NCBI RefSeq assembly: GCF_029255545.1
Contig: NZ_JANLJJ010000082.1
Coordinates: forward strand, 100,417-133,497
DNA from: Ferrovibrio sp.
GTDB lineage: Bacteria > Pseudomonadota > Alphaproteobacteria > Ferrovibrionales > Ferrovibrionaceae
Direction of reading: 5' to 3'
DNA: 33,081 nt
Shown here: positions 1,629 to 19,844 of the stretch, one piece after another
Layout of the letters: every line of letters begins with the position of its first letter
How positions within the stretch are numbered: position 1 is the stretch's first letter
Position numbers and translations under genes: made by a program
Notes under the pieces: model-generated
Database searches by the model: none
Seen by the model: the letters and a program-made list of their open reading frames with translations, nothing else
Told to the model about the DNA's origin: nothing

Positions 1629-1644
1629 AGACTCAGCGGCCGCT
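1614..1644 (-). terminator. Rho-independent terminator at the end of the 12-gene operon
   Basis: On the minus strand AGCGG and CTGA pair with TCAG and CCGCT around a GTCT loop, with a 3-nt bulge, followed directly by seven Ts (plus 1614-1620). The hairpin overlaps the stop codon of the methyltransferase gene (1633-1635) and the last codons of the convergent gene ending at 1628. On the plus strand it is not followed by Ts, so it acts on the minus strand only. Confidence 0.6.
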
Positions 1645-2436
1645 TCCTGCGCCATCCCAGCGGCTCGCCTGCACCGTAATATCCAGACTGGTTTCGTTGT
1701 CGATCTCACCGCGCGGCGCCACGGGCCAGCGCCATTCGCGTTGCGGCGTGGGCAGGCTCAGCCCCAGCAGCGCGTTTTCGCTCATCACCGTTTCGCCGGC
1801 GCGGCTGCGCCAGATGCGGCGCGCATCCGCCACCAGTCCGACCGGGCAGGACATGCCCTGCAAGGCGTCGAGATGCATCTGCAGGATGGCGCGGCCGAAA
1901 CTCTCGGCGCCAACGCGACTGACGCCATGCTTCTGCACATATTCCATCGGCAGCAACGGCAGCTGCGACAGCAGGTTGAGCGACAGAACGCAATCCGGCG
2001 GCACGCTGTCGAGTTCGGCCAATGCCCGCATCGACGGGATCGGCAGCGGCAGGCCGGCGCGCCATTCGGCCAGCGGCGCAACCATGCCAGTAACATCGGC
2101 CTGGCGCAGTTCGACATTGGGGAATTGCTTCGCCCGGCGCCGCGCGCTTGCCAGCCAGACGATATCGAAAATCACCACGCGCTTGAACAGCGCGCTGAGC
2201 TCGGCCAGCGGCAGATCGGCCAGCGTGCCGCCACCCAGCAGCCACGCTGTGTCTCGGTGGCGGCAAGCCTGGGCTATCGACAGGGCAAACTCGCGGGTCT
2301 GCTGCTCATGCCCGGCCCAGGCCCTGTGGCAGCGCCGTCGCCGCGACCATAGCGAAACCGCCGCTTTTGCATAACCCAGCCGCCGCGCCGCCGGATCGGC
2401 CTGGATGCCGGCCCAGGCGACAAGTTCGACCAGCAT
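1633..2436 (-). CDS. Putative class I SAM-dependent methyltransferase-like protein
   Basis: The protein has 267 residues. A region near residues 60-120 looks like a Rossmann nucleotide or SAM fold: a hydrophobic strand and glycine-rich turn (WLLGGGTLADLPL), a second strand ending in an acidic residue (VVIFDIVWL), then QFPNVELRQADVTG, where the acidic turn would contact the adenine. The glycine motif is not a strict GxGxG, so enzymatic activity is an inference. The start ATG at 2436 lies 3 nt after the HyuB stop, making this the last gene of the operon. Its substrate is unknown; by position it could modify a pathway intermediate or be a structural partner of HyuAB. Confidence 0.72.
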   Translation of the reverse strand: MLVELVAWAGIQADPAARRLGYAKAAVSLWSRRRRCHRAWAGHEQQTREFALSIAQACRHRDTAWLLGGGTLADLPLAELSALFKRVVIFDIVWLASARRRAKQFPNVELRQADVTGMVAPLAEWRAGLPLPIPSMRALAELDSVPPDCVLSLNLLSQLPLLPMEYVQKHGVSRVGAESFGRAILQMHLDALQGMSCPVGLVADARRIWRSRAGETVMSENALLGLSLPTPQREWRWPVAPRGEIDNETSLDITVQASRWDGAGSGR

Positions 2437-2439
2437 CGA

Positions 2440-4164
2440 CTATTCGGCCGCTGACCTGGCCGGCGGGGTGACCCCGAAGCGTTCGGCGATCTGCTGCGGC
2501 GTGTAATAGCCACGTTCGATATCGCGAGCAATCTCGGCCGGATCGCGCTTGGCCGGATCGCCATAGCCACCACCACCCGGCGTCGAAACGCGCAGGCGGT
2601 CGCCGACCTTGATCTCGATATCCTGGTCCTTGGAGAGATGCGGCGGCACATAGGTGCGGGTGCCATCGGCCTGAACGGTCTCGATCGCCACCGTATTGAG
2701 GCCGCCATCCTCGCCGCCCAGCACCCCGCGCGGACCCGTGCGGCCATGATCCATCACCATGGATGCCCGGGCCTCGCCCCGCCGCAGCCGGATCGTGTAG
2801 TTCACGCCGAAGCCGCCCCGATGTTCGCCGGCGCCGCCCGAGCCCTCATGCAGTGAGTATTCCTCGAACAGCACGGGGTAATACTGCTCCATCACCTCGA
2901 TCGGCGTGGTCTTGGAAATACCGATGGTCGAGCAGCCGTTGCTGATGCCGTCGCCGCCATACCAGCCACCATAACCGCCGCCCGAGATCACATACATCAC
3001 GTAACTGCGGTCGCGCTTGGGGTCATAACCACCGAGCGCCAGGTTGCCCGAAGTGCCGGCGGGCGCAGCGAACAGCCGGTCCGGCATCGCCTGCACCAGC
3101 GCGTTGAACACGGCTTCGGCGATACGCTGGCTGACTTCAGCGGCGCAACCCGAGACCGGGCGCGGATATTTGGCATACAGGAAGGTGCCGTGCGGGTCCT
3201 TGATCTTCAGCGGCTCGAAAGTGCCGGCATTGATCGGCACGTCGGGGAAGATGTGTTTCACGGCCAGGTAGATCGAGGAATAGGTGGTGGCGATCACGCT
3301 GTTCATCGGGCCACGGCATGGTGGGCTGGAGCCCGTCATGTCGAAATGCAGCTCCTCGCCCGTCTTGTTCACCTGCATTTTGATCAGCAGCGGCTCGTCC
3401 ACCACGCCATCGGAATCGACCACTGCCTCGCCATGATAGACGCCATCCGGGATGGTGCGGATACGGGCGCGCATCTGCTGAGCCGCGCGCTGCTTCAGTT
3501 CGCCGATCGCCTGCTTGACCACATCGGCGCCGTAGCGGTCGAGTAAAGCCGACAGGCGCTTCTCGCCGATGGCCAAAGCTGCCGCCTGGGCCTTGATGTC
3601 GCCAATGCGCTGGTCGGCGATACGGATATTGCTGAGGATGATGGAGAGGATTTCCTCGTCCAGCACGCCTTCCTTGTACAGCTTCACCGGCGGCAGGCGC
3701 AGGCCTTCCTGCTCCACCTCGGTGGCATTGGCCGAGAAACCACCCGGCACCATGCCGCCGATATCCGGCCAGTGGCCGGTATTGGACAGCCAGGCGAACA
3801 GCCTGCCCTTGTAGAAGAACGGCTTGACGAAACGCACATCCATCAGATGCGTGCCGCCCAGATAGGGATCGTTGACGATGTAGACATCGCCGGGCTTGGG
3901 CGCCAGCAGCGGCGTGTTGCGCGCCCGCTCGATCACCGCCTGCGTCGAGAACTGCATGGTGCCGACGAAAACCGGCAGGCCAAGCTCGCCCTGGGCGATC
4001 AGTTCGCCGGTCTCGCCGTCATAGATACCGTCGGAGCGGTCGAGCGCTTCCGAGATCACCGGCGAAAAGGCGGCGCGGCAGAAAGCTAGGTCCATCTCGT
4101 TGCAGACCTGCTGCAGGCCGTTCTGGATGACGACGAGGGTTACCGGATCAATCGGCTTGGCCAT
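2440..4164 (-). CDS. hyuB: Hydantoinase B / oxoprolinase family protein
   Basis: This 574-residue protein is the B subunit of the ATP-dependent hydantoinase/5-oxoprolinase family, of usual length. It starts MAKPIDPVTLVVIQNGLQQV and carries the family landmarks NDPYLGGTH (98-106), SNTGHWPDIGG, and a C-terminal glycine-rich segment with YGGWYGGDGISNG and EGSGGAGEHRGGFG. With HyuA it is expected to hydrolyse a cyclic amide (hydantoin, oxoproline, lactam or carbonyl substrate) using ATP in the cytoplasm; the B subunit is thought to carry the amide-opening site. It lies 9 nt after HyuA and 3 nt before the methyltransferase gene. Family is secure; the actual substrate cannot be read from the sequence. 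Confidence 0.93.
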   Translation of the reverse strand: MAKPIDPVTLVVIQNGLQQVCNEMDLAFCRAAFSPVISEALDRSDGIYDGETGELIAQGELGLPVFVGTMQFSTQAVIERARNTPLLAPKPGDVYIVNDPYLGGTHLMDVRFVKPFFYKGRLFAWLSNTGHWPDIGGMVPGGFSANATEVEQEGLRLPPVKLYKEGVLDEEILSIILSNIRIADQRIGDIKAQAAALAIGEKRLSALLDRYGADVVKQAIGELKQRAAQQMRARIRTIPDGVYHGEAVVDSDGVVDEPLLIKMQVNKTGEELHFDMTGSSPPCRGPMNSVIATTYSSIYLAVKHIFPDVPINAGTFEPLKIKDPHGTFLYAKYPRPVSGCAAEVSQRIAEAVFNALVQAMPDRLFAAPAGTSGNLALGGYDPKRDRSYVMYVISGGGYGGWYGGDGISNGCSTIGISKTTPIEVMEQYYPVLFEEYSLHEGSGGAGEHRGGFGVNYTIRLRRGEARASMVMDHGRTGPRGVLGGEDGGLNTVAIETVQADGTRTYVPPHLSKDQDIEIKVGDRLRVSTPGGGGYGDPAKRDPAEIARDIERGYYTPQQIAERFGVTPPARSAAE

Positions 4165-4173
4165 AATCCACCT

Positions 4174-6216
4174 CTACTCTGCGCTGACGGCAACGATCAG
4201 GTTGCCCAGGCTGTCGACATGCACGTGGTTGCCCGGCTCGATCACCACCGTGGTATCGAGCTGCTCCAGGATGGCCGGGCCGGCGAAATCGGCCCCGCGT
4301 GGCAGCCGCTCGCGGTCATAGACCGGCGTATCCTGCCAGCCGCCGGCATCATACCAGACTTTGCGGCTGCCCTTCCTGGCGCCGGCGACATCCTTGGCCG
4401 GCTCGGCGGCCAGCAGGCGGTCGAGCGATAATTGCGGCCGACGGCCGATCACGGCGGTATGAAGATTGACTAGCACGGCGCGGATTTCCGGCAGCTCGAC
4501 TTCAAACCGCTGCCAGTAGGCCTCCTCGAAGGCTTTCTGCAAAGCCTCACGCGTGATGCCCTTGTCGGGCACGGCCACAGTGAGCAGATGGCTCTGGCCC
4601 TGGAACTGCATGTCGGCGGAGTGCAGCACCTGCACCTCTTCCACCTTCACGCCGTCGCGCTCCAGCGTCGCCCTGCCCTCGGCGACCTGGCCATCCAGAA
4701 CCTCGGCCACCAGCCCGTCCGGCAGCACGCCCAGCGGCTTGTTCACCGTGCGCACGTAATCATGGCGCAAGTCGGCCACCACGCAGCCCAGTGCATTGGT
4801 GATGCCCGGGCGCGCCGGGATCAGCAGCTTCGGGATGCCCAGTTCGCGCGCCAGCGCCGCCGCATGCAGCGGCCCGGCGCCGCCGAAGGCAAACAGCGCG
4901 AAATCGCGCGGGTCATGACCACGGCTGAGCGAGACCATGCGAATGGCGCCGGCCATCTTGTCATTGGCGATGCGCAGGATCGCGGCGGCAGCATCGTCGG
5001 TACTCAGACCCAGCGGCTTGCCGACCTCGCGGTCGATGGCATCCTTCACATCCTGCAGCGATACCTTGTTGTCGACCGACAGCAGGCCATCGGGATTGAG
5101 CCGGCCGAGCGCCAGGTTGGCATCGGTGATGGTCGGCCTCGTGCCGCCACGGCCATAGCAGATCGGGCCGGGCCGCGCGCCGGCGCTTTCCGGCCCGACC
5201 TGCAGCATGCCAGCCTCGTTGATGAAGGCGATCGAGCCGCCGCCAGCGCCGATGGTATGCACGTCCACCATGGGCACGTGGATCGGCATGGCGTATTCGA
5301 TCTCAAGCTCGGATGAGACCTGCGGCACGCCATCCTGGATCAGGCCCACGTCAGACGACGTACCGCCCATGTCGTAGGTAATCACGTTGGGCAGGCCGGC
5401 GGCGCGCGCGGTATAGGCCGCCGCCATCACGCCCGAGGCCGGGCCGGACATCACCGTATTCACCGCGGCCTCGGCCACGATTCCGGCAGCGATGGTCCCG
5501 CCGTTGCCCTGCATCACCAGCAGGTCGCGCCCAAAACCCTTGCCCTTCAGCTCGCCATTCAGTCGTTCGATATAGCGGTGCAGCACCGGCTGCACGGAAG
5601 CATTGACGCAGGCGGTGGTGCCGCGTTCGTATTCGCGGTATTCCGACAACAGCTGATGGCCTGCGGTGATGTAGCCGTTCGGCCAGACCTCGGCGGCGAT
5701 CTCCAGCGCGCGCTTTTCATGCGCCGGATTGATGTAGCTGTGCAGGAAATGGATCACCAAAGCCTCGCAGCCGGCTTTTTTCAGCTGCCCGGCGGCTTCA
5801 CGCACGGCGGCTTCATCCAGCGGCACGACCACGTCGCCATCGGCATCCATGCGCTCGGGCACTTCCAGGCGCCACTGGCGCGGCACCAGCGGCTCGAAAC
5901 CGCCGGTCAGGCCATAGGCCTGCGGCCGGGTGCGGCGGCCAAGCTCAAGGCTGTCGCGGAAGCCCTTCGTGGTGATAAGGCCCACGCGGGCCACCTTGCG
6001 CTCCAGCAGGGCGTTGGTGGTGGTGGTGGTGCCATGCACGATGGTATCGGCCTGGGGCAGCGCGATGCCGCCCTTTTCCAAAGCGCTGAGCACGCCAAAA
6101 GCCTGGTTGTCCAGGGTGGTGGGCACTTTCGCCAGCGCAACGGCACCCAGCGACGGCTCGATCCCGATCAGATCGGTGAACGTACCGCCGACATCGATCC
6201 CGACAATCCAACCCAT
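4174..6216 (-). CDS. hyuA: Hydantoinase A / oxoprolinase family protein
   Basis: This 680-residue ATP-binding subunit belongs to the ASKHA fold. Landmarks are MGWIVGIDVGGTFTD (phosphate-1 loop, 8-15), HGTTTTTNALLERK (from 61), MSGPASGVMAA, YDMGGTSSDVG and FGGAGPLHA. Family members phosphorylate a cyclic amide or carbonyl, which the B subunit then opens. The frame is open to 6261, but ATG 6216 is preferred: it has GAGGA 8-9 nt upstream, gives the family's compact N-terminus, and avoids overlapping the LivF stop at 6227. Co-transcription after an ABC transporter and a heteroaromatic hydroxylase suggests it opens a ring made by those enzymes; this is inference. Confidence 0.93.
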   Translation of the reverse strand: MGWIVGIDVGGTFTDLIGIEPSLGAVALAKVPTTLDNQAFGVLSALEKGGIALPQADTIVHGTTTTTNALLERKVARVGLITTKGFRDSLELGRRTRPQAYGLTGGFEPLVPRQWRLEVPERMDADGDVVVPLDEAAVREAAGQLKKAGCEALVIHFLHSYINPAHEKRALEIAAEVWPNGYITAGHQLLSEYREYERGTTACVNASVQPVLHRYIERLNGELKGKGFGRDLLVMQGNGGTIAAGIVAEAAVNTVMSGPASGVMAAAYTARAAGLPNVITYDMGGTSSDVGLIQDGVPQVSSELEIEYAMPIHVPMVDVHTIGAGGGSIAFINEAGMLQVGPESAGARPGPICYGRGGTRPTITDANLALGRLNPDGLLSVDNKVSLQDVKDAIDREVGKPLGLSTDDAAAAILRIANDKMAGAIRMVSLSRGHDPRDFALFAFGGAGPLHAAALARELGIPKLLIPARPGITNALGCVVADLRHDYVRTVNKPLGVLPDGLVAEVLDGQVAEGRATLERDGVKVEEVQVLHSADMQFQGQSHLLTVAVPDKGITREALQKAFEEAYWQRFEVELPEIRAVLVNLHTAVIGRRPQLSLDRLLAAEPAKDVAGARKGSRKVWYDAGGWQDTPVYDRERLPRGADFAGPAILEQLDTTVVIEPGNHVHVDSLGNLIVAVSAE

Positions 6217-6226
6217 AACGCTGTCC

Positions 6227-6928
6227 TCACACCGAAAGATACTGTTCACGCACCGCCGCATTGGCCGCCAATTCGGCCATGGTGCCGGAATAGCGGATGC
6301 GGCCCTTCTCGATGATGTAGGCGCGATCAGCCACCATCTGGGCGAAATGCAGGTTCTGCTCCGACAGCAGCACGCACAGCCCTTCGTCTTTCAGCTGCAG
6401 GATGGTTTTCGCCATCTGCTCGACGATCACCGGCGCCAGGCCTTCCGACGGCTCGTCCAGCAGGATCAGGCGCGGATTGCCCATCAGCGTGCGGGCGATG
6501 GTCAGCATCTGCTGCTCACCGCCCGACATGCGGCCGCCGGGGCGGTCCTTCATGCGGCCGAGATTGGGAAACAGCTCGAACAGCCGTTCCGGCGTCCAGG
6601 TCGGCGCGCCGTCGCGCGGCGGCTGTTTGCCGACCGCCAGATTCTCCATCACCGTCAGATCGGTGAAGATGCGACGCTCCTCCGGCACATAGCCAAGGCC
6701 GAGCCGGGCGATGTGATGCGAGGCCATGCGGTCGATCCGCGTACCATCGAAGGTCATCGCGCCGCTCTGCGCCGGCACCATGCCGATCACCGATTTCATC
6801 GTGGTCGATTTGCCAGCGCCGTTGCGGCCCAGCAGCACCACCACCTCGCCCGGATTGGCCTGCAACGCCAGGTCGGCCAGGATATGGGCGCGGCCGTAAT
6901 AGGTGTTGAGCCCTTCGATTGTCAGCAT
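6227..6928 (-). CDS. livF: Branched-chain-type ABC transporter ATPase LivF
   Basis: This 233-residue ATPase is of normal LivF length. Walker A GRNGAGKST is at 34-42, the Q-loop region GYVPEERRIF follows, the signature is MSGGEQQ (134-140), Walker B is LILLDEPSEGLAP (from 154), and the tail ends EQYLSV. It powers uptake as a heterodimer with LivG at the inner face of the membrane. It starts 1 nt after the LivG stop and ends 10 nt before HyuA, so the transporter and hydantoinase are probably translated from one message. Substrates of this ABC family reach well beyond branched-chain amino acids, including aromatic acids, urea and amides. Confidence 0.95.
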   Translation of the reverse strand: MLTIEGLNTYYGRAHILADLALQANPGEVVVLLGRNGAGKSTTMKSVIGMVPAQSGAMTFDGTRIDRMASHHIARLGLGYVPEERRIFTDLTVMENLAVGKQPPRDGAPTWTPERLFELFPNLGRMKDRPGGRMSGGEQQMLTIARTLMGNPRLILLDEPSEGLAPVIVEQMAKTILQLKDEGLCVLLSEQNLHFAQMVADRAYIIEKGRIRYSGTMAELAANAAVREQYLSV

Positions 6929-6929
6929 C

Positions 6930-7694
6930 TCAGTGGCCCTCCCCGGCGAATACGGCGCCCGATCCCAGATACACCGCCTGCACCTCCGGATTGGCCCGCA
7001 CCTCGTCAGGACTGCCTTCCGCGATCAGCCGGCCGCGATTGAGCACGATGATGCGGTCGGCCTGGGCGAAAACCACGTCCATGTCATGCTCGGTGAACAA
7101 CACGGCGATATCATCCTGCCGCGCCAGTTTCGCCGTCAGGTCCATCAGGGCGATGCGTTCGGTCGGCGCCATGCCGGCGGTCGGCTCGTCCATCAGCAGC
7201 AATTTCGGCTGGTTGGCCAGCGCGATGGCCAGTTCGACGCGCTTGAGATCGCCATAGGCCAGGATGCCGCAGGGCCGCTCGCTCTGGTCGGCCATGCCGA
7301 CGCGGTCCAGCAAAGCCATCGCCTCGTCGCGATACAGCGCATTGGCCGGGCGCCAGAACGACATCAGGCCATTATGGAACGACAGCAGCGCCATCTGGAT
7401 ATTTTCGCGCACCGTCATCGAATTGAAGGTGGCGGTGATCTGGAAGGTGCGACCGACGCCCAGGCGCCAGATCTGCCGCGGCGCCAGGCCGAGCAGGCTG
7501 CGGCCCAGCAGGGTCACCACGCCGGTATCGGGCCTGAGCTGGCCATTCAGCATGTTGAAGCAGGTGCTCTTGCCGGCGCCATTGGGACCGATCAGGGCCA
7601 GCAGCTCGCCGGCGGCGACCTGGAAGTTCACATCCTGCACCGCCTGCACGCCGCCGAAGGATTTGTGCAGGCCTTTCACCGAGAGAACGGTCAT
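6930..7694 (-). CDS. livG: Branched-chain-type ABC transporter ATPase LivG
   Basis: This 254-residue ATPase begins MTVLSVKGLHKSFGGVQAV. Walker A GPNGAGKST is at 36-44, the FQITATFNSMTVREN segment is typical of LivG, the degenerate signature reads LAYGDLKR, and Walker B is LLLMDEPTAGMAP. The frame stays open upstream to 8258, but that part only shadows the permease gene. ATG 7694 overlaps the permease stop by 4 nt (ATGA) and gives the family's proper N-terminus. It partners LivF in driving the LivHM permease. Confidence 0.95.
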   Translation of the reverse strand: MTVLSVKGLHKSFGGVQAVQDVNFQVAAGELLALIGPNGAGKSTCFNMLNGQLRPDTGVVTLLGRSLLGLAPRQIWRLGVGRTFQITATFNSMTVRENIQMALLSFHNGLMSFWRPANALYRDEAMALLDRVGMADQSERPCGILAYGDLKRVELAIALANQPKLLLMDEPTAGMAPTERIALMDLTAKLARQDDIAVLFTEHDMDVVFAQADRIIVLNRGRLIAEGSPDEVRANPEVQAVYLGSGAVFAGEGH

Positions 7695-9592: not shown

Positions 9593-9632
9593 GGCCGCGA
9601 CCCGAGGAAAGAAGGAAGGGAAGAAATGCCCC

Positions 9633-9671
9633 CTGCCCGACGGCCGCGCGGCCATGGGCAGGGGGCGGGCT
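9633..9671 (-). terminator. Strong hairpin between binding-protein and permease genes
   Basis: On the minus strand GCCCCCTGCCC and GGGCAGGGGGC form a perfect 11-bp stem around a 17-nt loop that itself contains GGCCGCGCGGCC. A pyrimidine-rich stretch (ATTTCTTCCCTTCC) follows, not a pure T run. It begins 8 nt past the binding-protein stop at 9680. Such hairpins often stabilise the upstream message or partly attenuate transcription, allowing more binding protein than permease. Full termination is unlikely because transporter genes follow. Confidence 0.55.
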
Positions 9672-9679
9672 TGTATGGC

Positions 9680-10891: not shown

Positions 10892-10942
10892 GTAATCCCC
10901 TCCTGTTTGTAGTGTTGATCCTCAACGCGTAACGCTAATTCC

Positions 10943-11527
10943 CTATCTCTGGCCGTCTTCGCCCTTGATCTCGTGGGCCTGCAGGCCGCCGACGCGGGCA
11001 TGCACGCGTCCGCCCGTGCTCATGGCCAGAATGAACGCGATCTCGTTGTCGCGCGGCCCGTCGGGCGCGCAGAATTCAATGGCATCGAAATGGCTGCGCA
11101 CATAGGCGGCGTTGATGTGATGCAGCGGAATGTCGATGCGGCTGCCCACGCCGGCCAGCTTGGTGGCCGAGGGCACGATGGCCTTCGCATTGCCCAGCAC
11201 GTCGCGCATGGAGTGGCCGCCGGCGACATGCCACAGCGCGCCATGCTCCAGTTCGCCGCCGGCGCCGACGATGGCGCCCTTCCCATAAGCCTCGATGTCC
11301 TTCGGGTTGCCACCAAGCGCCGCCACCAGGCGCTTCGCCAGCTCGACTCCGACCGGCTTCAGCGCGTCCATCATCGGAATAATGTCATCGACGTAGCGGC
11401 CGGCATAGGGATTCTTGACCAGCGCGCCGATCACGCCACGGCGCGGCGGCCGGGCCGCCTTCGGGCCGCCATCGTGAAAAATCTCGTCAGTGATGCAGAC
11501 GATCCTGCGGACCTCGACCGATACCAT
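10943..11527 (-). CDS. Amino acid synthesis family protein (DUF1185-like)
   Basis: This 194-residue protein opens MVSVEVRRIVCITDEIFHDGG and contains RRGVIGALVKNPYAGRYVDD, YGKGAIVGAGGELEHGALWH and a C-terminal GGRVHARVGGLQAHEI. These match the small 'amino acid synthesis' family (PF06684), to my knowledge without a firmly established reaction. No signal peptide or membrane segment is seen, so it is cytosolic. It starts 3 nt after the UPF0280 stop and is embedded with a molybdenum hydroxylase, an Fe-S reductase and hydantoinase, which argues for a catabolic rather than biosynthetic role. Family assignment is from recalled motif pattern; function is open. Confidence 0.82.
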   Translation of the reverse strand: MVSVEVRRIVCITDEIFHDGGPKAARPPRRGVIGALVKNPYAGRYVDDIIPMMDALKPVGVELAKRLVAALGGNPKDIEAYGKGAIVGAGGELEHGALWHVAGGHSMRDVLGNAKAIVPSATKLAGVGSRIDIPLHHINAAYVRSHFDAIEFCAPDGPRDNEIAFILAMSTGGRVHARVGGLQAHEIKGEDGQR

Positions 11528-11530
11528 GCC

Positions 11531-12418
11531 CTACCCCATTGCCTTTCGTTCACTGGCCAGCAGCGTTTCGCCGCCGGTGCTGCGATGCTCGCCCTGCAGC
11601 GAGAGGAATGCCGCGTGAATCAGCCCGGCGCGGCGCAGATCCTGCGCGCGGCGCAGACCCGCCGACAAGGCTTCCTCTACGGCAAATAACGGCAGTGTAC
11701 CTACGTTCGCGGTCACCGGGATATCGCCCAGGTCAGACTCGTCGCGCAGCCTGCACGCCGGCCGGCGCTCAATGGCAGGATGATCGATATTCACTGCATT
11801 CGCCACCATCGTCGCGGCTGCATCCGCCATTGCCGCATTCGTCGCCAGAATGGTCACCGCATCGGCAATGCCGCGCGAGAACGAACGCCCGCGCCAACCG
11901 GAAGTAGCGATCCCGCGCGAAGGGTGTTCCGATGAGAGTGTCGCAACCGCATCCAGATGCGGCAGATCGGGATTGCACACCACTGCGGCGCGCAGCGACT
12001 CAGCCGGCGCCAGATGAAAAGCGATGTCGCCACCGTTGTTCACATAAGCCCTGGCCAGTGTCGTGTCGCACAGCATGGCCTGCAGGATTTCATCGGCCAC
12101 CGAGCCGGCCACGGCGGCCATCGGCGTGATGTAGACATCGCGATAGGGCCAGCAGGCCGCCGCCATGCGCCGCGCCACCGGGCCGCGCAGCAGCGGATGC
12201 GCCTCGCCCAGCGGCCGGCGCAGGTCGCTCAGCTCGCTGACCAGCACGGTGAGGATATCCTGGAATCGCGCAACCGCCTGCTCATAGGCGCGCTGCATGT
12301 CGGCAGTCGGCCCGAAAGCCTCGACGATCAGGTCGATCGGACCATGCTGCAGATGCAGGCGGCGCGAGGAGAGATCGCGGCCGTTGAGCCAGGCGGCGGT
12401 GGGCGGCTGGCCGATCAC
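11531..12418 (-). CDS. UPF0280 family protein (ApbE-like fold)
   Basis: This 295-residue protein starts at a GTG that overlaps the upstream reductase stop by 4 nt (GTGA). Landmarks include YVNNGGDIAFHL, a central TSGWRGRSFSRGIADAVTIL segment and AAATMVANAVNIDHPAIERRPA, which match the UPF0280 family; members are described as related in fold to the FAD:protein FMN transferase ApbE. No reaction is established to my knowledge. Its place directly behind a flavin/iron-sulfur reductase-like gene makes either cofactor attachment or a catalytic step on the pathway possible. Confidence is high for a real gene and good for the family. Confidence 0.82.
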   Translation of the reverse strand: MIGQPPTAAWLNGRDLSSRRLHLQHGPIDLIVEAFGPTADMQRAYEQAVARFQDILTVLVSELSDLRRPLGEAHPLLRGPVARRMAAACWPYRDVYITPMAAVAGSVADEILQAMLCDTTLARAYVNNGGDIAFHLAPAESLRAAVVCNPDLPHLDAVATLSSEHPSRGIATSGWRGRSFSRGIADAVTILATNAAMADAAATMVANAVNIDHPAIERRPACRLRDESDLGDIPVTANVGTLPLFAVEEALSAGLRRAQDLRRAGLIHAAFLSLQGEHRSTGGETLLASERKAMG

Positions 12419-13923
12419 GGCTGTTCCTCGGCGGTCGGCCGGGTGATCGGCCAGGGATTGTCATCGCGCCAGGCCAGCTTGCTGAGACGTTCGCCCTGCA
12501 GCACGTCATTGAGCTGCACGACATAATCCATATGACCGCCCAGCGCGGCATAATCGTCACGCCGCATGGTGAACTCGATTGGCGCCACCAGGGCCGGCGT
12601 CGGCACATAGCCGAAGGAATTGTCCGGCATGCGCGCCACATCGACCATGTAGGTGATGCCGCCGCCCGGCCAGACATAGACCGGCGCGCCGCCCGAGGTG
12701 ACGCGGGTCAGGCGATCTTTCACCGACAGCGTCAGGCGGACCGGATTCTCCGTCACGCCCGCGCGCAGGCTGCCGCCGGCACCGGCCATGAACAGTACGG
12801 TGCACAGCGAGGGCTCGCAATTCTCGGCGATGCGCTCGACCACCTTGGTGATCGGCGCCGGCATCGCGGCCGGCCGCGGCTTGAGCTGGTCGTCCAGCAC
12901 ATACCAGGCGCTGTGTTCGCCTGTGGTCGAGACCATCAGCAGCCGCATGCCCGGCCAGGCCGTCTTCGGATCGATGCTCTCGATGATCTCGAGCGGATCG
13001 GAGACATTGGTGCCGCCCCAGCCCAGGCCCGGATCGGCCACCTGGAAATAACGGCCCGGCGTGGATTTGCGGCCGCGCACGCGGATGCCCGACAGTTTCA
13101 TGTCGAGGAAACGGCCGGCCTGGTGCTCGGTCAGCACGCCGGTGATATGGTCGTCCACCACGATCACCTCGTCGGCATGCTCCAACCACTGCTTGGCGAA
13201 GATGCCGATCGTGGCCGAACCGCAGCCAACCCGCATACGGGCTTCCGGTTTTCCATTCACCACCGGCGGCCTGTCGGCCTGGATGACGACTTCAGCGCCG
13301 CCATCGATCTGCACGGTGACCGCCTGTTTGTTGCAGAGCGCCAACAGCGCGTCGCAGGTGACGGTGCCTTCCTTTTTGCTGCCGCCGGTCAGGTGGTGCA
13401 CGCCCCCGAGCGAGAGCATCTGCGAGCCGTATTCGGTGGTGGTGACGTGGCCGATCGCCTCGCCATTCACCCGCACGGATGCCTGCTCGGCGCCGAGGTA
13501 ACGATCGGTGTCGATCTTCACCTTCACGCCGCAATAGCTGAAGATGCCTTCGGTCACCACGGTCACCATGTCGACGCCGTCATGCTGCGAGGCGACGATG
13601 AAGGGGGCCGGCTTGTAATCGGGGTAGGTGGTGCCGGCGCCAACGCCGGTGACGAAGGTGGCGGCTTTCAGGGCTTCGGGTGGCGGCGCCGCGACCGAGC
13701 CGTTCCAGCCTTCGCTGCCCGACAGGAAGGGCGTGATGCTGCCGCCCTGGGCAATGGCGCGCTCGGTGACGATCAGCGGATCGACGCGGGTCAGCACGCC
13801 GGCGACATTGGCATAGCGGTCGCAGGCGCCGGCCTTGCCCGGGCGGATGCGGCACAATACCGGACAGGCATCGCAGCGGACGACGTCGTCCTTGACGGCT
13901 TCGGCGGTGGCAACGGCGGTCAT
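12415..13923 (-). CDS. 6-hydroxynicotinate reductase-like iron-sulfur protein
   Basis: This 502-residue cytosolic protein begins with a cysteine cluster C17-x2-C20-x3-C24-x9-C34 (CDACPVLCRIRPGK and onward), suited to a [4Fe-4S] centre. Further cysteines occur in YCGVKVKID and VGCGSATIG. The pattern resembles proteins annotated as 6-hydroxynicotinate reductase, named for the Eubacterium barkeri enzyme that reduces 6-hydroxynicotinate to 1,4,5,6-tetrahydro-6-oxonicotinate with ferredoxin. A good ribosome site (GGGGAGGAGGG) precedes ATG 13923. It lies 16 nt after the molybdenum hydroxylase, which is the enzyme type that makes hydroxylated heteroaromatics. The natural substrate here is inferred; other hydroxylated N-rings are equally possible. 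Confidence 0.78.
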   Translation of the reverse strand: MTAVATAEAVKDDVVRCDACPVLCRIRPGKAGACDRYANVAGVLTRVDPLIVTERAIAQGGSITPFLSGSEGWNGSVAAPPPEALKAATFVTGVGAGTTYPDYKPAPFIVASQHDGVDMVTVVTEGIFSYCGVKVKIDTDRYLGAEQASVRVNGEAIGHVTTTEYGSQMLSLGGVHHLTGGSKKEGTVTCDALLALCNKQAVTVQIDGGAEVVIQADRPPVVNGKPEARMRVGCGSATIGIFAKQWLEHADEVIVVDDHITGVLTEHQAGRFLDMKLSGIRVRGRKSTPGRYFQVADPGLGWGGTNVSDPLEIIESIDPKTAWPGMRLLMVSTTGEHSAWYVLDDQLKPRPAAMPAPITKVVERIAENCEPSLCTVLFMAGAGGSLRAGVTENPVRLTLSVKDRLTRVTSGGAPVYVWPGGGITYMVDVARMPDNSFGYVPTPALVAPIEFTMRRDDYAALGGHMDYVVQLNDVLQGERLSKLAWRDDNPWPITRPTAEEQP

Positions 13924-13939
13924 GGCTGCCCTCCTCCCC

Positions 13940-16666
13940 TTATTCTGCCGCCTGCGGCAGGTTTTTCAGCGCCGCATGCAAGCGATGTGGCAGCACCGGC
14001 ACCTCGGTGACGCGCACGCCGGTGGCATGGCGGATCGCGCCCAGGATAGCCGGGGCGGTGGCGACCAGGCCGGGTTCACCGACGCCTTTGGCACCGAAGG
14101 GGCCGAGCGGCTCGGCATCCTCGATCATCAGCACCTCGATCTCCGGCACGTCGCCCACGGTGGGGATCAGGTAATCATGCAGGTTCTCGGTGCGTCCGGG
14201 CAGGTATTCCTCCATCAGCGCCAGGCCCAACCCCTGCGCGATGCCGCCATGGATCTGGCCTTCGACCTGGACCGGATTCACAGCCTTGCCGACATCATGC
14301 GCGGCGATGATCTTTTGCACCTTCACGGTGCCAAGCTCGGTATCGACCTCGACCAGCGCCATCTGCGCGGCGAAGCCATAGGTCGCATAAGGCACGCCCT
14401 GGCCGTTTTCATCCAGCATGGTGGTCGGCGGGTCGAAGCGGCCCTCGCCCAGCAGCACGTCGCCATCGTCGCTCAGGCGCGGCAGGGCGGCCAGGTCAAC
14501 GCGGCGCACCACGCCGCCATCCTCCACGCTCAGCGCGCCGGCCTCGAATTTCAGCGTGGCATTGTCGCCGGCATTGGCCAGCCGCAGGATCTGGCCACGC
14601 AGGTCGCGCGCCGCCAGTTCGACCGCCTTGCCCGACACGAAGGTCTGGCGCGAGGCCGAGGTCTTGCCGGCATCCAGCGTGCGGTCGGTATCGCCCATCA
14701 CGTAGTCGATGCGGTCCATGGTCACGCCCAGCGCATCGGCCAGAATCTGCACGAAGATAGTGTTCGAGCCCTGCCCGATATCGACCGCGCCGTTATAGAA
14801 GAACACGCGGCCATCGGCGCGCAGGGCGACGCGCATGGTGGACGGATTCGAGATCGAGGTGTTGCCCAGGCCATACCACATGCAGCCGATGCCGACGCCG
14901 CGCCGCACGCCCTTGCGGCGGGCATTGAAGGCCTCGGCCTCGGCTTTCAGGGCCTGCCATTGCGGGCGCAGCGCGTCGATGCAGGCGGCCAGGCCGGCCG
15001 AATGCTCCAGCCGGTGGCTGGTCGCGGTCAGGTCGCCGGCGCGCAGGGCATTGCGATGGCGGATTTCCAGCCGGTCGATCTTCAGCCGCTCGGCCAGATC
15101 GTCCATCAGGGTTTCATGGGCGATGGCGGCCTGCGGCACGCCGAAGCCGCGGAAGGCGCCGGCGGGCGGCGCATTGGTGAACAGCGCGCAACTGCGGTTC
15201 TTCACATGCGGCACCAGATACGGGCCGCTGGCATGCACCGGCACGCGGTTGGCCACGGTGGGGCCCCAGCTGGCATAGGCGCCGGTGTCGAAATCGGCAT
15301 GGGTTTCAACGGCCACCAGTTTGCCGTCCTGCGCCGCGCCGAACTTGGCCTTGATGCGCGCCGGATGCCGCTTGGTGCTGGAGGCCATGCTTTCCGGCCG
15401 CGTGTAGACGCAGGCCACCGGCCGATGCAGGTTCCACGCCGCCAGCGCGATCAGCGGCTGCACGGAAACGTCCAGCTTGCCGCCGAAACCGCCGCCGCAG
15501 GCGGTCGGCACGATGCGCACGCGATCAGGCGGCAGCTGCATCACGCTCGCCACTTCGTCGCGATCCATGTAGGGCGCCTGGGTGGAGGCATGAATCTCGA
15601 TGCGGTCGCCGACGCGGATGGCCCAGCCGGCTTCCGGCTCGATATAGGCATGCTCGACGAAGCTGGTCCGGAACTGGCCTTCCACAACGGCGGCGGCCTG
15701 GGCAAAACCCAGCTCGACATCGCCCTTGGTGACATTGCCGCGGATCAGCACGTTGCCCGGCTTGTCGGCCTGCACCAGCCTGGCATCCGGCGCGGCGGCA
15801 GCGATCACGCCGCTGACCGGTTCTTCGGGCGCATAGGTGATCGGCAGCTCGTCCGGCCGCACGGCTTCGACAACCTCGCGCGGACCCACCAGCGCCACCA
15901 CCGCCTCGCCCTTGTAACGCACCAGGCCATCGGCTAGCACCGGCTGGTCCTTGGCCTCGAAAATGGCAAAGCCGTTGCGCGGCACGTCGGCCGCCGTGAA
16001 CACGCGCTCCAGGCCGTATTTGCCGATCACGCCGGAGAAATCGCCCAGCGTGAAGGTGGCGCGGGCATGCGGGCTGCGGATCACGCGCAGCCACAGGGCA
16101 TCAGCCGGAATGTAGTCGGCGCCGTATTTCTCGGTGCCTTCCACCTTGGCCTGGCCATCGACCTTCATGCTGCGGGCGCCCACCGCGCCGCCCAGCCGGG
16201 GCTGCGGCGGCAAGTCCGGCGTGCGCGTGGCATCCAGCACCGCCTCGACGATCTTGCGATAGCCGGTGCAGCGGCACAGCACGCCGCCAATGGCATCCAT
16301 TACCTGCTGTTCGCTGGGCCGCGCCGTCTCGGCCAGCAGATCGGTCGCCGCCATCAGCATGCCGGGCGTGCAGATGCCGCATTGCGCCGCGCCATGTTTC
16401 AGGAATGCGCGCTGCAGGCGCGACAGGCTGCCATGGGCCTTCAGGCCTTCGACCGTCACGACCGGCTGTCCCGCGGCCTGCCCAACCGGGGTGAGGCAGG
16501 AGCAGACCTGCCTGCCATTCATCATCACCGTGCAGGCGCCGCAATCGCCGGCATTGCAGCCGACTTTCGTGCCGGTCAGGCCCAGGTCATCACGCAGCAC
16601 GTCGCTCAGCCGCTTGGCCGGAGAACCGTGATAGGTATGCTGTTTGCCGTTGACGATCAGACGCAT
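13940..16666 (-). CDS. Molybdopterin-dependent hydroxylase, fused [2Fe-2S] and Mo domains
   Basis: This 908-residue enzyme belongs to the xanthine oxidase family. A plant-ferredoxin-type [2Fe-2S] domain has C37, C42, C45 and C57; the second cluster domain has C96, C99, C131 and C133. The Mo-binding part carries CGGGFGGK, AFRGFGVPQ and, near the C-terminus, FGAKGVGEPG, whose Glu (about 864) is the conserved active-site base. Order and length parallel the Desulfovibrio gigas aldehyde oxidoreductase (907 residues), which lacks FAD; here a separate FAD subunit is encoded 6 nt upstream. It would hydroxylate a heteroaromatic ring or oxidise an aldehyde with water-derived oxygen. Context with the reductase gene favours an N-heteroaromatic substrate. 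Confidence 0.92.
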   Translation of the reverse strand: MRLIVNGKQHTYHGSPAKRLSDVLRDDLGLTGTKVGCNAGDCGACTVMMNGRQVCSCLTPVGQAAGQPVVTVEGLKAHGSLSRLQRAFLKHGAAQCGICTPGMLMAATDLLAETARPSEQQVMDAIGGVLCRCTGYRKIVEAVLDATRTPDLPPQPRLGGAVGARSMKVDGQAKVEGTEKYGADYIPADALWLRVIRSPHARATFTLGDFSGVIGKYGLERVFTAADVPRNGFAIFEAKDQPVLADGLVRYKGEAVVALVGPREVVEAVRPDELPITYAPEEPVSGVIAAAAPDARLVQADKPGNVLIRGNVTKGDVELGFAQAAAVVEGQFRTSFVEHAYIEPEAGWAIRVGDRIEIHASTQAPYMDRDEVASVMQLPPDRVRIVPTACGGGFGGKLDVSVQPLIALAAWNLHRPVACVYTRPESMASSTKRHPARIKAKFGAAQDGKLVAVETHADFDTGAYASWGPTVANRVPVHASGPYLVPHVKNRSCALFTNAPPAGAFRGFGVPQAAIAHETLMDDLAERLKIDRLEIRHRNALRAGDLTATSHRLEHSAGLAACIDALRPQWQALKAEAEAFNARRKGVRRGVGIGCMWYGLGNTSISNPSTMRVALRADGRVFFYNGAVDIGQGSNTIFVQILADALGVTMDRIDYVMGDTDRTLDAGKTSASRQTFVSGKAVELAARDLRGQILRLANAGDNATLKFEAGALSVEDGGVVRRVDLAALPRLSDDGDVLLGEGRFDPPTTMLDENGQGVPYATYGFAAQMALVEVDTELGTVKVQKIIAAHDVGKAVNPVQVEGQIHGGIAQGLGLALMEEYLPGRTENLHDYLIPTVGDVPEIEVLMIEDAEPLGPFGAKGVGEPGLVATAPAILGAIRHATGVRVTEVPVLPHRLHAALKNLPQAAE

Positions 16667-16672
16667 CGGACC

Positions 16673-17533
16673 TCAGTTCCCCTTCTGCTTGCCGAGCGCG
16701 GTGAGCGCGCGACGCACCAGCACTATCGCCGCCTCGCGGCGATAGGCGGCGCTGGCGCGGATGTCGTCGATCGGCGCCAGCATGTCGAAATGTTCGGGCT
16801 TCACCCGGTTGGCCAGCGCCGCATTCAGCCGGCGGCCAATCAGTTCGGATTCAAGATACGGCAGCCGCTGCGCCACCGCCGAGCAGGCGCCGACCGCCAC
16901 GCTGGCCGCCGACACCACATTGCCTTCGGTTTCCAGCACCACGGCGACCATGGCGATCGAAATCACCAGGTATTCGCGGGCGCCGAGTTTCAGGAAAACG
17001 CTCTGGGCATCCTTTTTCGGCCGCGGCACCAGCACGGCGGCCACCAGCTCGCCGGGCTTCAGCACGGTGCGGCGGTTGCCGGTGATGAACTCGCCCAGCG
17101 GCAATTCGCGGCGCCCGGCGCGGCCGTGGATTTCCACCTTGGCCCGCATCGCCAGCAACGGCGGCACGCTGTCGGCCGCCGGCGATGCATTGCACAGATT
17201 GCCGGCCAGGGTGCCGGCATTCTGGATCTGCACGCCGCCAATCAGGCGCGCGGCACGGCGCAGGGCATCGAAAACCGGCGGCAGATCGGCATGGGCGATC
17301 TCGCTCCAGGTGGTGGTGGCGCCGAGGCGCCAGCCATCCTCGGTTTCGCGGATGCCGCGCAGGTCGGGGATGCCGGTGACGTCCAGCACATCCTCGTCCA
17401 GCGCGCGGCCGACCCGGGCGGGATAGAAATCGGTGCCGCCGGCCAGAATCACCGGCCCGGCCGCATTTATACTGGCGGCGCTCAGATGATCGAGCGCTTC
17501 ATCGAGACTCGTCGGACGCACATACGACGCCAT
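16673..17533 (-). CDS. FAD-binding subunit of the molybdenum hydroxylase
   Basis: This 286-residue protein has the size of CoxM/XDH-type FAD subunits. It starts MASYVRPTSLDEALDHL, with FAD motifs ILAGGTDFYP (about 29-38) and IQNAGTLAGNLCNASPAAD, both typical of the vanillyl-alcohol-oxidase-like FAD domain in this enzyme family, and a CO-dehydrogenase-flavoprotein C-terminal domain. It passes electrons from the iron-sulfur clusters to the final acceptor. A GGGGAGG sequence lies upstream of ATG 17533. It is the first gene of the minus-strand operon; the next gene starts 6 nt after its stop. No cysteine motif for an extra cluster is visible. Confidence 0.93.
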   Translation of the reverse strand: MASYVRPTSLDEALDHLSAASINAAGPVILAGGTDFYPARVGRALDEDVLDVTGIPDLRGIRETEDGWRLGATTTWSEIAHADLPPVFDALRRAARLIGGVQIQNAGTLAGNLCNASPAADSVPPLLAMRAKVEIHGRAGRRELPLGEFITGNRRTVLKPGELVAAVLVPRPKKDAQSVFLKLGAREYLVISIAMVAVVLETEGNVVSAASVAVGACSAVAQRLPYLESELIGRRLNAALANRVKPEHFDMLAPIDDIRASAAYRREAAIVLVRRALTALGKQKGN

Positions 17534-17589: not shown

Positions 17590-17838
17590 ATCATTCGTGT
17601 GCATATGATGCTGCGATGCTGCCTCAAAAGAGTCAACGTCAAAATTTCAGCAGACGCTGCCTGCAAATGCGGCAGTGCAACATAAGCCAAGTCGCCGCAC
17701 GTTCATGCCACTTCTGCATGTTCCATCCGGCAAAGCGACGGCCTTCAGGCTCAAGGCTGGTTTTCAGATGAAGGGGCAACGCCGGTCTGATGCGCCTATG
17801 TCGCGACTAGCATCGAATATTTCGCTTGAGGCGGCCTC

Positions 17839-19737: not shown

Positions 19738-19844
19738 CCTGGGGCTGTTCCTCGACACCCGGTCTTCGCTACCGGGCAAGTCCAGTCTAACCGGGGCAAA
19801 CCGTTCCGGCCAAGTTATTCCAAGGGCGAAACCTGCCGGCGCGG

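What the first reader, a model, noticed from the sequence alone, without database searches (positions are those of the whole stretch)
1633..17533. Twelve-gene operon that reads as a reductive N-heterocycle degradation pathway
Seen: twelve minus-strand genes with gaps of -4 to +51 nt (the permease start is uncertain) and a closing T7 terminator. They combine a three-cofactor molybdenum hydroxylase, a 6-hydroxynicotinate reductase-like Fe-S protein, two uncharacterised proteins, a complete Liv-type importer, ATP-dependent HyuAB and a methyltransferase-like protein. Known: Mo hydroxylases oxidise N-rings; the E. barkeri reductase partly saturates the 6-hydroxypyridine ring; HyuAB opens cyclic amides. 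Inferred: import, hydroxylation, reduction and ATP-driven ring opening. A reductive nicotinate route has been described in the aerobe Azorhizobium caulinodans, but the amidohydrolase-type enamidase of E. barkeri is absent here, so HyuAB may be an alternative ring opener.
Basis: partly seen in the sequence, partly recalled or inferred. Interest (0 to 1): 0.75.

Follow-up and report, generated by a model that had tools for sequence, protein, structure and literature searches.

The report
Nicotinate operon with ATP-driven ring opener
A bacterium carries what looks like a vitamin-B3-degrading operon in which the usual ring-opening enzyme is replaced by an unrelated ATP-using one, and the same either/or swap recurs across many genomes, which points to an enzyme activity that I found described nowhere.

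Summary
In detail: twelve minus-strand genes, 17533 to 1633, gaps -4 to +51. The reading holds and can be sharpened. The Fe-S protein belongs to the proteobacterial 6-hydroxynicotinate reductases (HNR). Of 386 alphaproteobacterial genomes 68 have HNR; 30 of these have an orthologue of E. barkeri-type enamidase, 38 one of this operon's HyuB, none both, none neither. Smaller follow-up sets show the same with a few exceptions. The swap recurs on the HNR tree. A MarR gene upstream has the four residues with which BpsR binds 6-hydroxynicotinate, and a palindrome precedes the operon in both cluster types. HyuB keeps the metal ligands of ATP-dependent caprolactamase. Best explanation: nicotinate is hydroxylated, reduced to the lactam THON, and opened by HyuAB with ATP instead of by enamidase. 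The COG2122/ApbE-like protein occurs in exactly the same 68 genomes as HNR and is probably its maturation factor. Nothing is shown biochemically. It is a new variant of a known pathway; the twelfth, methyltransferase-like gene looks like a genus-level passenger.

The parts
19279..19779 (-). MarR-family regulator, BpsR-like; predicted 6-hydroxynicotinate-responsive repressor
   Evidence: Pfam MarR; phmmer to BpsR 6pcp/6pco E 1.3e-25 and 1.7e-25, best PDB match 2nnn E 3.4e-29; Y32 H40 R43 H49 match BpsR Y15 H23 R26 H32 in identity and spacing
17591..17608 (.). Putative operator: 18-bp palindrome TCATATG-N4-CGAATGA (minus strand), 58-75 nt before the first gene
   Evidence: at most 2 mismatches to the degenerate motif in 51 of 70 upstream regions, 35 of 54 not seen when the motif was drawn; 45 of 3500 shuffled upstream stretches
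16673..17533 (-). Molybdenum hydroxylase FAD subunit (nicotinate hydroxylase, predicted)
   Evidence: Pfam FAD_binding_5 and CO_deh_flav_C
13940..16666 (-). Molybdenum hydroxylase, fused [2Fe-2S] + molybdopterin subunit
   Evidence: Pfam Fer2, Fer2_2, Ald_Xan_dh_C, MoCoBD_1, MoCoBD_2
12415..13923 (-). 6-hydroxynicotinate reductase homologue (HNR), Fe-S protein
   Evidence: Matches in 68 of 386 class genomes, all at 63% identity or more; named 6-hydroxynicotinate reductase in 17 of 26 plasmid records, the other 9 without a named function; C17 C20 C24 C34 C234 C369, D257 D258 I260 T261 in 82 of 82 rows
11531..12418 (-). COG2122/UPF0280 ApbE-like protein, putative HNR maturation factor (flavin attachment inferred)
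   Evidence: NCBIfam NF003322 over its cut-off; profile to 2o34/DVU1097 E=8e-14; model resembles ApbE/Ftp flavin transferases; same 68 genomes as HNR
10943..11527 (-). AA_synth/DUF1185 protein, Bacillus chorismate mutase-like fold; role unknown
   Evidence: PF06684 E=1e-69; PDB 3byq, 2qtp; in 58 of 68 HNR genomes
9680..10891 (-). Liv-type substrate-binding protein
   Evidence: Pfam Peripla_BP_6
7691..9655 (-). Fused LivH-LivM permease (start uncertain)
   Evidence: Two BPD_transp_2 stretches; UrtB- and UrtC-like halves
6930..7694 (-). LivG-type ATPase
   Evidence: Translation, assigned by eye; start
6227..6928 (-). LivF-type ATPase
   Evidence: Translation, assigned by eye
4174..6216 (-). HyuA, ATP-binding subunit of predicted ATP-dependent THON lactamase
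   Evidence: Pfam Hydant_A_N, Hydantoinase_A, Hydant_A_C; best NCBIfam caprolactamase alpha, below its cut-off; PDB 7hk5, 6yra_A
2440..4164 (-). HyuB, metal-binding hydrolytic subunit
   Evidence: Pfam Hydantoinase_B; best NCBIfam caprolactamase beta, below its cut-off; D42 H106 D109 H131 align with CapB D41 H99 D102 H124
1633..2436 (-). Methyltransferase-like ORF (by eye); genus-level passenger, not part of the conserved set
   Evidence: No Pfam/NCBIfam match at E<=0.01; found after HyuB in 3 of 3 other genus genomes looked at (69, 51, 47% identity), not in 2 stretches after HyuB in more distant genomes nor in 9 further loci
1614..1637 (-). Weak terminator-like hairpin with T7 tract

Best explanation
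The operon encodes the reductive (THON) route of nicotinate degradation with a substituted third step. The importer brings in nicotinate or a near relative. The molybdenum hydroxylase makes 6-hydroxynicotinate. HNR, matured by the COG2122/ApbE-like protein, reduces it to 1,4,5,6-tetrahydro-6-oxonicotinate (THON), a six-membered lactam. HyuAB, an ATP-dependent lactamase of the oxoprolinase/caprolactamase type, activates the lactam in HyuA and hydrolyses it at the metal site of HyuB. This gives an enamine acid that loses ammonia to 2-formylglutarate, the product that enamidase makes without ATP elsewhere. A BpsR-like MarR repressor senses 6-hydroxynicotinate and controls the operon through a palindromic operator. 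Shown here by sequence: gene content, homology, complementarity, regulator residues, shared palindrome. Inferred: every enzyme activity, the substrate of the importer, the enamine step, and binding of the MarR to the palindrome.
For: (1) Among 68 HNR genomes of 386, 30 have an enamidase orthologue (66-77% identity) and 38 a HyuB orthologue (68-100%); none both, none neither (Fisher p 5.6e-20, phylogeny ignored). (2) HyuB lies within 25 kb of HNR in 20 of the 38; in 7 it is 45 kb to 1.4 Mb away on the same contig, in 11 on another contig, which in a draft need not be far. So the pattern is not only inheritance of one block. (3) At least 9 label changes on the HNR tree, 4 forced by well-supported branches; in the 4 supported independent pairs the two traits go opposite ways. 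(4) The replaced amidohydrolase is an enamidase relative: PDB 2vun E=1e-106 and 2.4e-111 for two examples. (5) The HyuB subfamily (65% or more) goes with HNR: 38 of 68 with, 4 of 318 without. (6) CapB metal ligands conserved; the related OplAB hydrolyses delta-valerolactam, a six-ring lactam, with ATP (PMC11033972). (7) The window's MarR has all four BpsR residues for 6-hydroxynicotinate, with the same spacing; Y and R are kept in 56 of 56 readable MarRs of the neighbourhoods. (8) A shared palindrome upstream of the hydroxylase genes at 2 mismatches or fewer in 22 of 29 enamidase-type and 29 of 39 HyuAB-type loci; leaving out the 16 loci seen when the motif was drawn, 20 of 27 and 15 of 25; 45 of 3500 shuffled upstream stretches. 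(9) Some rhizobial HyuAB clusters (L021, L022, L026, L041) have a NicAB-like hydroxylase nearby instead.
Against: No enzyme of this operon has been assayed. In the further genomes the rule is not perfect: of 37 named ones, 13 enamidase (two only in part or in pieces), 18 HyuB, 6 neither (five metagenome-assembled genomes of unknown completeness and the isolate Rhodovarius lipocyclicus, L016), and one HyuB genome (G405) also has a 55% enamidase relative. Of 13 more, two HyuB genomes (G527, G577) also have a 60-62% enamidase relative on another contig. In the first sample two HNR-less genomes have the enamidase orthologue, four the HyuB one and four more a HyuB relative at 60-62%. Labels cluster on the tree, so independent swaps are few (sign test p 0.125 on 4 pairs). 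HyuAB scores stay below the NCBIfam cut-offs shown, so its substrate cannot be read from sequence. Two of the four MarR pocket places vary across the clusters: the second is F in 27, H in 18, Y in 10; the fourth A in 18. Enamidase opens THON without ATP (recalled), so the reason for spending ATP is unexplained.
Confidence: 0.77

Rival explanations
1. Same architecture, but a different substituted pyridine or pyridone is the real substrate in HyuAB-type bacteria; HNR and HyuAB have shifted specificity together.
For: HyuAB clusters differ in transporter and, in some Rhizobium, in hydroxylase type; HNR identities within the family go down to 63%; two of four MarR pocket places vary.
Against: The MarR of the window has the complete 6-hydroxynicotinate pocket of BpsR and the palindrome is shared with enamidase-type clusters. 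HNRs of the two types are intermingled on the tree. Hydroxylases at 60% identity or more to the window's occur in both types.
Confidence: 0.13
2. HyuAB does not act on THON but on a later intermediate or a side product (for example a glutarimide or pyroglutamate-type lactam), and another enzyme opens THON.
For: HyuAB family members act on several lactams, hydantoins and oxoproline (PMC8453981); the DUF1185 protein beside HNR is uncharacterised and has a chorismate-mutase-like fold (PMC2954203, abstract start, passages).
Against: It would not explain why HyuB and enamidase orthologues exclude each other in the 68 genomes. DUF1185 is missing from 10 of the 38 HyuAB genomes and from none of the 30 enamidase genomes, the wrong way round for a substitute opener.
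Confidence: 0.08
3. The exclusion is a phylogenetic accident: two old lineages of the cluster, one with enamidase and one with HyuAB.
For: Labels are clustered (9 changes against a shuffled mean near 25); 31 of 33 families are uniform, many of them with one genome only.
Against: At least 4 well-supported switches, two families with both states (f98, f33), both states among records named Alpha- and Betaproteobacteria or Burkholderiales, and HyuB often far from HNR.
Confidence: 0.07

Closest known systems
Reductive nicotinate (THON) pathway of Eubacterium barkeri and of Azorhizobium/Bradyrhizobiaceae (PMC3511419; Alhapel et al. 2006 and Kitts et al. known to me from its reference list and recall)
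   Same: Genes for the first three steps including HNR, an ABC importer and two unknown conserved proteins in one cluster (sections 7 and 13 of PMC3511419); predicted intermediates 6-hydroxynicotinate and THON
   Different: No enamidase match in this genome; HyuAB takes its place. The window's hydroxylase has a fused Fe-S/Moco subunit, unlike the separate subunits of E. barkeri (recalled)
ATP-dependent caprolactamase CapAB (PDB 6yra; PMC8453981) and 5-oxoprolinase OplAB (PMC11033972)
   Same: Two-subunit ATP-dependent lactam hydrolases; metal ligands conserved; OplAB acts on a six-ring lactam
   Different: Near full-length alignment but scores at about a third to a half of the NCBIfam equivalog cut-offs; gene partners and predicted substrate (THON) differ
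BpsR, the MarR regulator of nicotinate genes in Bordetella (PDB 6pcp, 6pco; PMC6837509)
   Same: All four 6-hydroxynicotinate-binding residues and their spacing
   Different: Stands before a reductive pathway cluster here, not before aerobic nic genes; moderate similarity only (E about 1e-25)
COG2122/DUF39 homocysteine system (PMC5764234)
   Same: COG2122 works as a required partner of one specific protein
   Different: Partner here is HNR; no DUF39 (PF01837) in this genome and no HNR-DUF39 match seen

Membership tests
Reductive nicotinate (THON) pathway, E. barkeri type | Mo hydroxylase and 6-hydroxynicotinate reductase encoded together | tested here: met
   identity of this HNR to the E. barkeri enzyme itself not measured (42% for the SG-6C homologue, PMC3511419)
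Reductive nicotinate (THON) pathway, E. barkeri type | Enamidase (amidohydrolase) as ring opener | tested here: not met
   No match at E<=1e-60 in G000; none of the other 37 HyuB-bearing HNR genomes of the sample has one at 60% identity or more, two have 39-40% relatives
Reductive nicotinate (THON) pathway, E. barkeri type | Conversion of 6-hydroxynicotinate to THON and on to 2-formylglutarate | not testable with these tools
   Needs enzyme assays or growth tests
ATP-dependent lactamase (HyuAB/OplAB/CapAB) | HyuA and HyuB domains as two subunits | tested here: met
   PF05378, PF01968, PF19278, PF02538
ATP-dependent lactamase (HyuAB/OplAB/CapAB) | CapB-type metal ligands D41, H99, D102, H124 | tested here: met
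Caprolactamase proper (NF050156/NF050157) | Score above the NCBIfam equivalog cut-off | tested here: not met
   542 and 338 bits against 1000 each
BpsR-type 6-hydroxynicotinate regulator | Tyr15, His23, Arg26, His32 of the ligand pocket | tested here: met
   Y32 H40 R43 H49 of the window protein; the register rests on the paper's numbering and the start of the phmmer alignment, not on a printed alignment with BpsR
ApbE flavin transferase | ApbE fold | tested here: met
   Foldseek 4ifu, 7esc, 3pnd and others, E 2e-5 to 1e-3, TM-scores 0.33-0.55
ApbE flavin transferase | Pfam ApbE score above the gathering cut-off | tested here: not met
   18.6 bits against 25.6; 37 of 72 family members match at E<=1, best 1.2e-5
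ApbE flavin transferase | Catalytic Asp-Ser-His set (Vc ApbE D285, S241, H257) | tested here: inconclusive
   Invariant S173 and D199 look equivalent, no invariant His in that stretch; equivalence judged by eye
COG2122/UPF0280 | Family model and solved member | tested here: met
   NF003322 374 bits over cut-off 290; 2o34 E=8e-14

The most novel reading that the evidence does not exclude
HyuAB here is an ATP-dependent opener of a pyridine-derived ring, a THON lactamase not yet described. It has traded places with enamidase several times, so that about half of the HNR-bearing bacteria sampled use it. Its operon partner COG2122 is an obligate, HNR-specific covalent-flavin maturase; the same chemistry would then explain the need for COG2122 in homocysteine synthesis.
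Probability: 0.35. Interest if true: 0.8.

Novelty: new variant of a known kind. Interest (0 to 1): 0.63.

Why it matters
It names a candidate for the missing ring opener of the reductive nicotinate route in the many bacteria that have the reductase but no enamidase. It predicts an enzyme activity that a simple assay can test, and it offers an unusually clean natural case of non-orthologous replacement at one pathway step (30 to 38, no overlap in the main sample). It also gives a concrete client for COG2122, whose role in homocysteine synthesis is open, and a regulator and operator that would define the regulon. Annotations of these HyuAB vary (hydantoinase/oxoprolinase, N-methylhydantoinase, acetophenone carboxylase), which this would correct.

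Tried and rejected
HNR as a member of a known fold: no Pfam family over threshold, no convincing PDB sequence relative, no confident Foldseek or VIA match for a model with pLDDT 83.6; single domains were not folded apart, so a known fold is not excluded. The only repeated signal is a short barrel like the C-terminal domain of glycine cleavage T-protein, residues about 132-219 (80 of 83 members weakly, best E 3.9e-5; best Z 4.7), too little to use.

HNR as a relative of DUF39/HcyBio (shared COG2122 partner): no PF01837 among the 13 families that any of 83 HNR sequences matched at E up to 5, where the filters drop most weak hits; no DUF39 sequences could be fetched for a profile comparison. The idea is unsupported, not excluded.

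Flavinylation site in HNR: the stretch D258-x-I-T261-G-V-x-[S/T]265 is nearly invariant (T261 82 of 82; 265 is S 45, T 37) and loosely recalls the ApbE target motif (recalled), but does not fit it in register. That the E. barkeri reductase carries covalent flavin is recalled; the paper is not held.

DUF1185 as the enamine deaminase for the HyuAB route: rejected as a requirement, because it is absent in 10 of 38 HyuAB genomes and present in 30 of 30 enamidase genomes.

Methyltransferase-like ORF as a pathway part: rejected.

Rows dropped: of 97 full-length HNR rows, 14 left out as near-copies or doubles before alignment A1 (83 rows), and L132 (frameshifted) before the final tree (the first tree with it gave 9 changes, 5 forced). 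Of 72 loci with the FAD-subunit gene, one double and one without room upstream were left out of the operator count.

A third ring opener in L016 (neither enamidase nor HyuB): ten ORFs scanned, only a TPP enzyme, TctC receptors, HPPK and periplasmic binding proteins, two without a match; unexplained.

In print: '6-hydroxynicotinate reductase' (2 papers), 'Eubacterium barkeri'+nicotinate+reductase, '6-oxonicotinate'+'hydantoinase', any two of '6-hydroxynicotinate', '6-hydroxynicotinic', 'hydantoinase', 'enamidase' (19 papers, none of the 18 listed holds 'hydantoinase'), 'formylglutarate', 'nicotinic acid'+'methylhydantoinase'+'ring cleavage'. The library lacks most subscription papers.
Full report
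What is there. The window (G000:C82:100417-133497, a 4.1-Mb genome in 116 contigs; nearest named relatives are Ferrovibrio and unnamed alphaproteobacterial bins) holds twelve closely packed minus-strand genes from 17533 to 1633. Pfam and NCBIfam confirm a molybdenum hydroxylase (FAD subunit plus one fused Fe-S/Moco subunit), a Liv-type binding protein and fused permease, and HyuA and HyuB. The 502-aa Fe-S protein matches no Pfam or NCBIfam model at E<=0.01 and no PDB chain at E<=1. Its neighbour is a COG2122/UPF0280 protein (NF003322; DVU1097 structure 2o34, E=8e-14 with a profile). The next is AA_synth/DUF1185.

The Fe-S protein is the proteobacterial 6-hydroxynicotinate reductase. In 26 plasmid records its homologues (62-69% identity) are labelled 6-hydroxynicotinate reductase in 17; the other 9 bear no named function there. 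In the class sample 68 of 386 genomes have it, all at 63% identity or more, with nothing weaker down to E=1e-20. PMC3511419 (sections 7 and 13 read) describes, in Azorhizobium and Bradyrhizobiaceae, a cluster with the genes for the first three steps (the third, by inference, enamidase), this reductase (42% identity to the E. barkeri enzyme for strain SG-6C), an ABC importer and two conserved unknown proteins; strain SG-6C degrades nicotinate with 6-hydroxynicotinate appearing on the way. The window is therefore a relative of a described cluster. I did not hold the SG-6C or E. barkeri sequences, so membership of the same orthologous group rests on the absence of any second HNR-like group in the class sample.

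The swap. Of six annotated relatives, two have an amidohydrolase and no HyuAB, four have HyuAB. The two amidohydrolases match the solved E. barkeri enamidase, 2vun, at E=1e-106 and 2.4e-111. I then searched whole genomes for both. Of the 68 HNR genomes, 30 have an enamidase orthologue at 66-77% identity, 38 a HyuB orthologue at 68-100%, none both and none neither. Weaker relatives were not counted: enamidase-like at 39-40% in two HyuB genomes, HyuB-like at 43-46% in five enamidase genomes (thresholds E<=1e-60 and 1e-150). In the 318 HNR-less genomes of the sample, 2 have the enamidase orthologue, 4 the HyuB one (69-70%), and 4 more a HyuB relative at 60-62%. HyuB is within 25 kb of HNR in 20 of 38, 45 kb to 1.4 Mb away on the same contig in 7, and on another contig in 11, which in drafts need not be far.

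Checks on other genomes. Of 37 named HNR genomes (at least two of them already in the first sample, judged by identical coordinates), 13 have enamidase at 65% or more (one in part, one in two pieces), 18 have HyuB at 67% or more, none both at these cuts, 6 neither. Five of these six are metagenome-assembled genomes of unknown completeness and one is an isolate, Rhodovarius lipocyclicus. One HyuB genome of the 37 also has a 55% enamidase relative. A phylum draw found HNR in 18 of 249 genomes, 13 of them new. Of the 13, 5 have enamidase at 69% or more and no HyuB match, and 8 have HyuB; two of the 8 also have a 60-62% enamidase relative on another contig. So the rule is very strong but not absolute once more distant enamidase relatives are let in.

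Phylogeny. On an HNR tree of 82 rows, 77 with a label, the enamidase/HyuAB state changes at least 9 times, 4 of them forced by well-supported branches, and the 4 supported independent pairs all go opposite ways. The labels are clustered, so the Fisher value overstates the evidence, and a sign test on 4 pairs cannot reach significance. The point that survives is that the two ring openers trade places several times around one and the same reductase.

Chemistry. THON is a six-membered lactam. HyuB aligns over nearly its full length with caprolactamase CapB (6yra_B, E=1e-83) and keeps its metal ligands. The related OplAB is strongly active on delta-valerolactam with ATP (PMC11033972, abstract and passages). 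Caprolactamase is thought to activate the lactam in CapA and to hydrolyse it in CapB through a tunnel (PMC8453981, passages). A HyuAB acting on THON would give an aminomethylene acid that releases ammonia to 2-formylglutarate, the enamidase product (recalled from the E. barkeri work). This step is inference.

Regulation ties both cluster types to 6-hydroxynicotinate. A MarR gene at 19279-19779 matches BpsR (6pcp, 6pco, E about 1e-25; best PDB match overall 2nnn). BpsR binds 6-hydroxynicotinate with Tyr15, His23, Arg26 and His32 (PMC6837509, passages). The window protein has Y32, H40, R43, H49, the same residues at the same spacing. Among 57 MarR genes in the neighbourhoods (best hit per locus, near-copies included, one unreadable at these columns) Y and R are kept in 56 of 56; the second place is F 27, H 18, Y 10, N 1; the fourth H 37, A 18, N 1. 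An 18-bp palindrome lies upstream of the hydroxylase genes in most clusters: at most 2 mismatches to TCRTWYG-N4-CRWAYGA in 51 of 70 upstream regions, against 2% of 1400 stretches drawn at random from the same loci and 45 of 3500 shuffles of the upstream stretches themselves. By type it is 22 of 29 enamidase, 29 of 39 HyuAB, 0 of 2 unlabelled. I drew up the motif after looking at 16 of these loci; without them it is 35 of 54 (20 of 27, 15 of 25, 0 of 2). In the window it lies at 17591-17608. That the MarR binds it is inference.

The two unknown proteins. COG2122 is found in exactly the 68 genomes that have HNR and in none of the other 318 at E<=1e-10. Its model resembles DVU1097 and, more weakly, ApbE/Ftp flavin transferases, but its ApbE Pfam score is below the cut-off and no invariant histidine stands where ApbE has its base (judged by eye). 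In Desulfovibrio COG2122 is needed, with DUF39, for homocysteine synthesis; the paper notes that its homology to ApbE does not seem to reach the flavin-binding region, and its role is open (PMC5764234, passages), which speaks against a flavin role. Since the E. barkeri reductase is said to hold covalent flavin (recalled), a flavin-attaching or other maturation role for HNR is still my best guess, at perhaps 0.45. DUF1185 is in 58 of 68 HNR genomes, 30 of 30 with enamidase and 28 of 38 with HyuAB (p 0.0017, phylogeny ignored), so it is not needed for the HyuAB route and its function stays unknown.

Verdict. It is a new variant of a known pathway: the third enzyme of the reductive nicotinate route appears to be replaced by an ATP-dependent lactamase. 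No held paper that my searches listed joins hydantoinase with 6-hydroxynicotinate, which is not proof of novelty. What is missing is an enzyme assay.

Noticed in passing
window 18393-19271 (+): A fatty-acid-hydroxylase-family gene lies between the MarR gene and the operon. The MarR-to-hydroxylase distance is 2.2 kb in the window and in its nearest relative L002, but 0.6 kb in L003, L004 and L075, so about 1.6 kb was gained or lost within the genus.
   Followed up: partly
window 11531-12418; The COG2122-type protein and the reductase occur in exactly the same 68 of 386 genomes, a perfect match that points to obligate partnership.
   Followed up: yes
L088, L084 (G063, G339): A HyuA relative (69-70%) is in the HNR cluster with no HyuB seen after it in the stretch fetched, while the HyuB orthologue lies 1.4 and 0.6 Mb away; the two subunits may be split there.
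   Followed up: no
L016 (Rhodovarius lipocyclicus): An isolate with HNR and COG2122 but neither an enamidase (only a 43% relative) nor a HyuB orthologue; a third ring opener may exist there.
   Followed up: partly
L132 (G027): HNR reads in two adjoining pieces in different frames in a one-contig genome, either a sequencing error or a decayed gene.
   Followed up: no
L040 18055-19122, L044 17544-18614 and others: Some HNR clusters carry a Rieske oxygenase of the VanA type, perhaps feeding a more decorated pyridine into the route.
   Followed up: no
window 12415-13923: HNR has no Pfam or NCBIfam model and no confident fold match, although it occurs in 68 of 386 sampled alphaproteobacterial genomes.
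   Followed up: partly
G108, G205, G290, G363 (family f108): Four HNR-less genomes of one family have the HyuB orthologue at 69-70% identity; a related lactam may be its substrate there.
   Followed up: no
window 1633-2436: The methyltransferase-like gene after HyuB is kept in three other genomes of the genus but diverges faster (47-69% identity) than HyuB (86-92%).
   Followed up: partly
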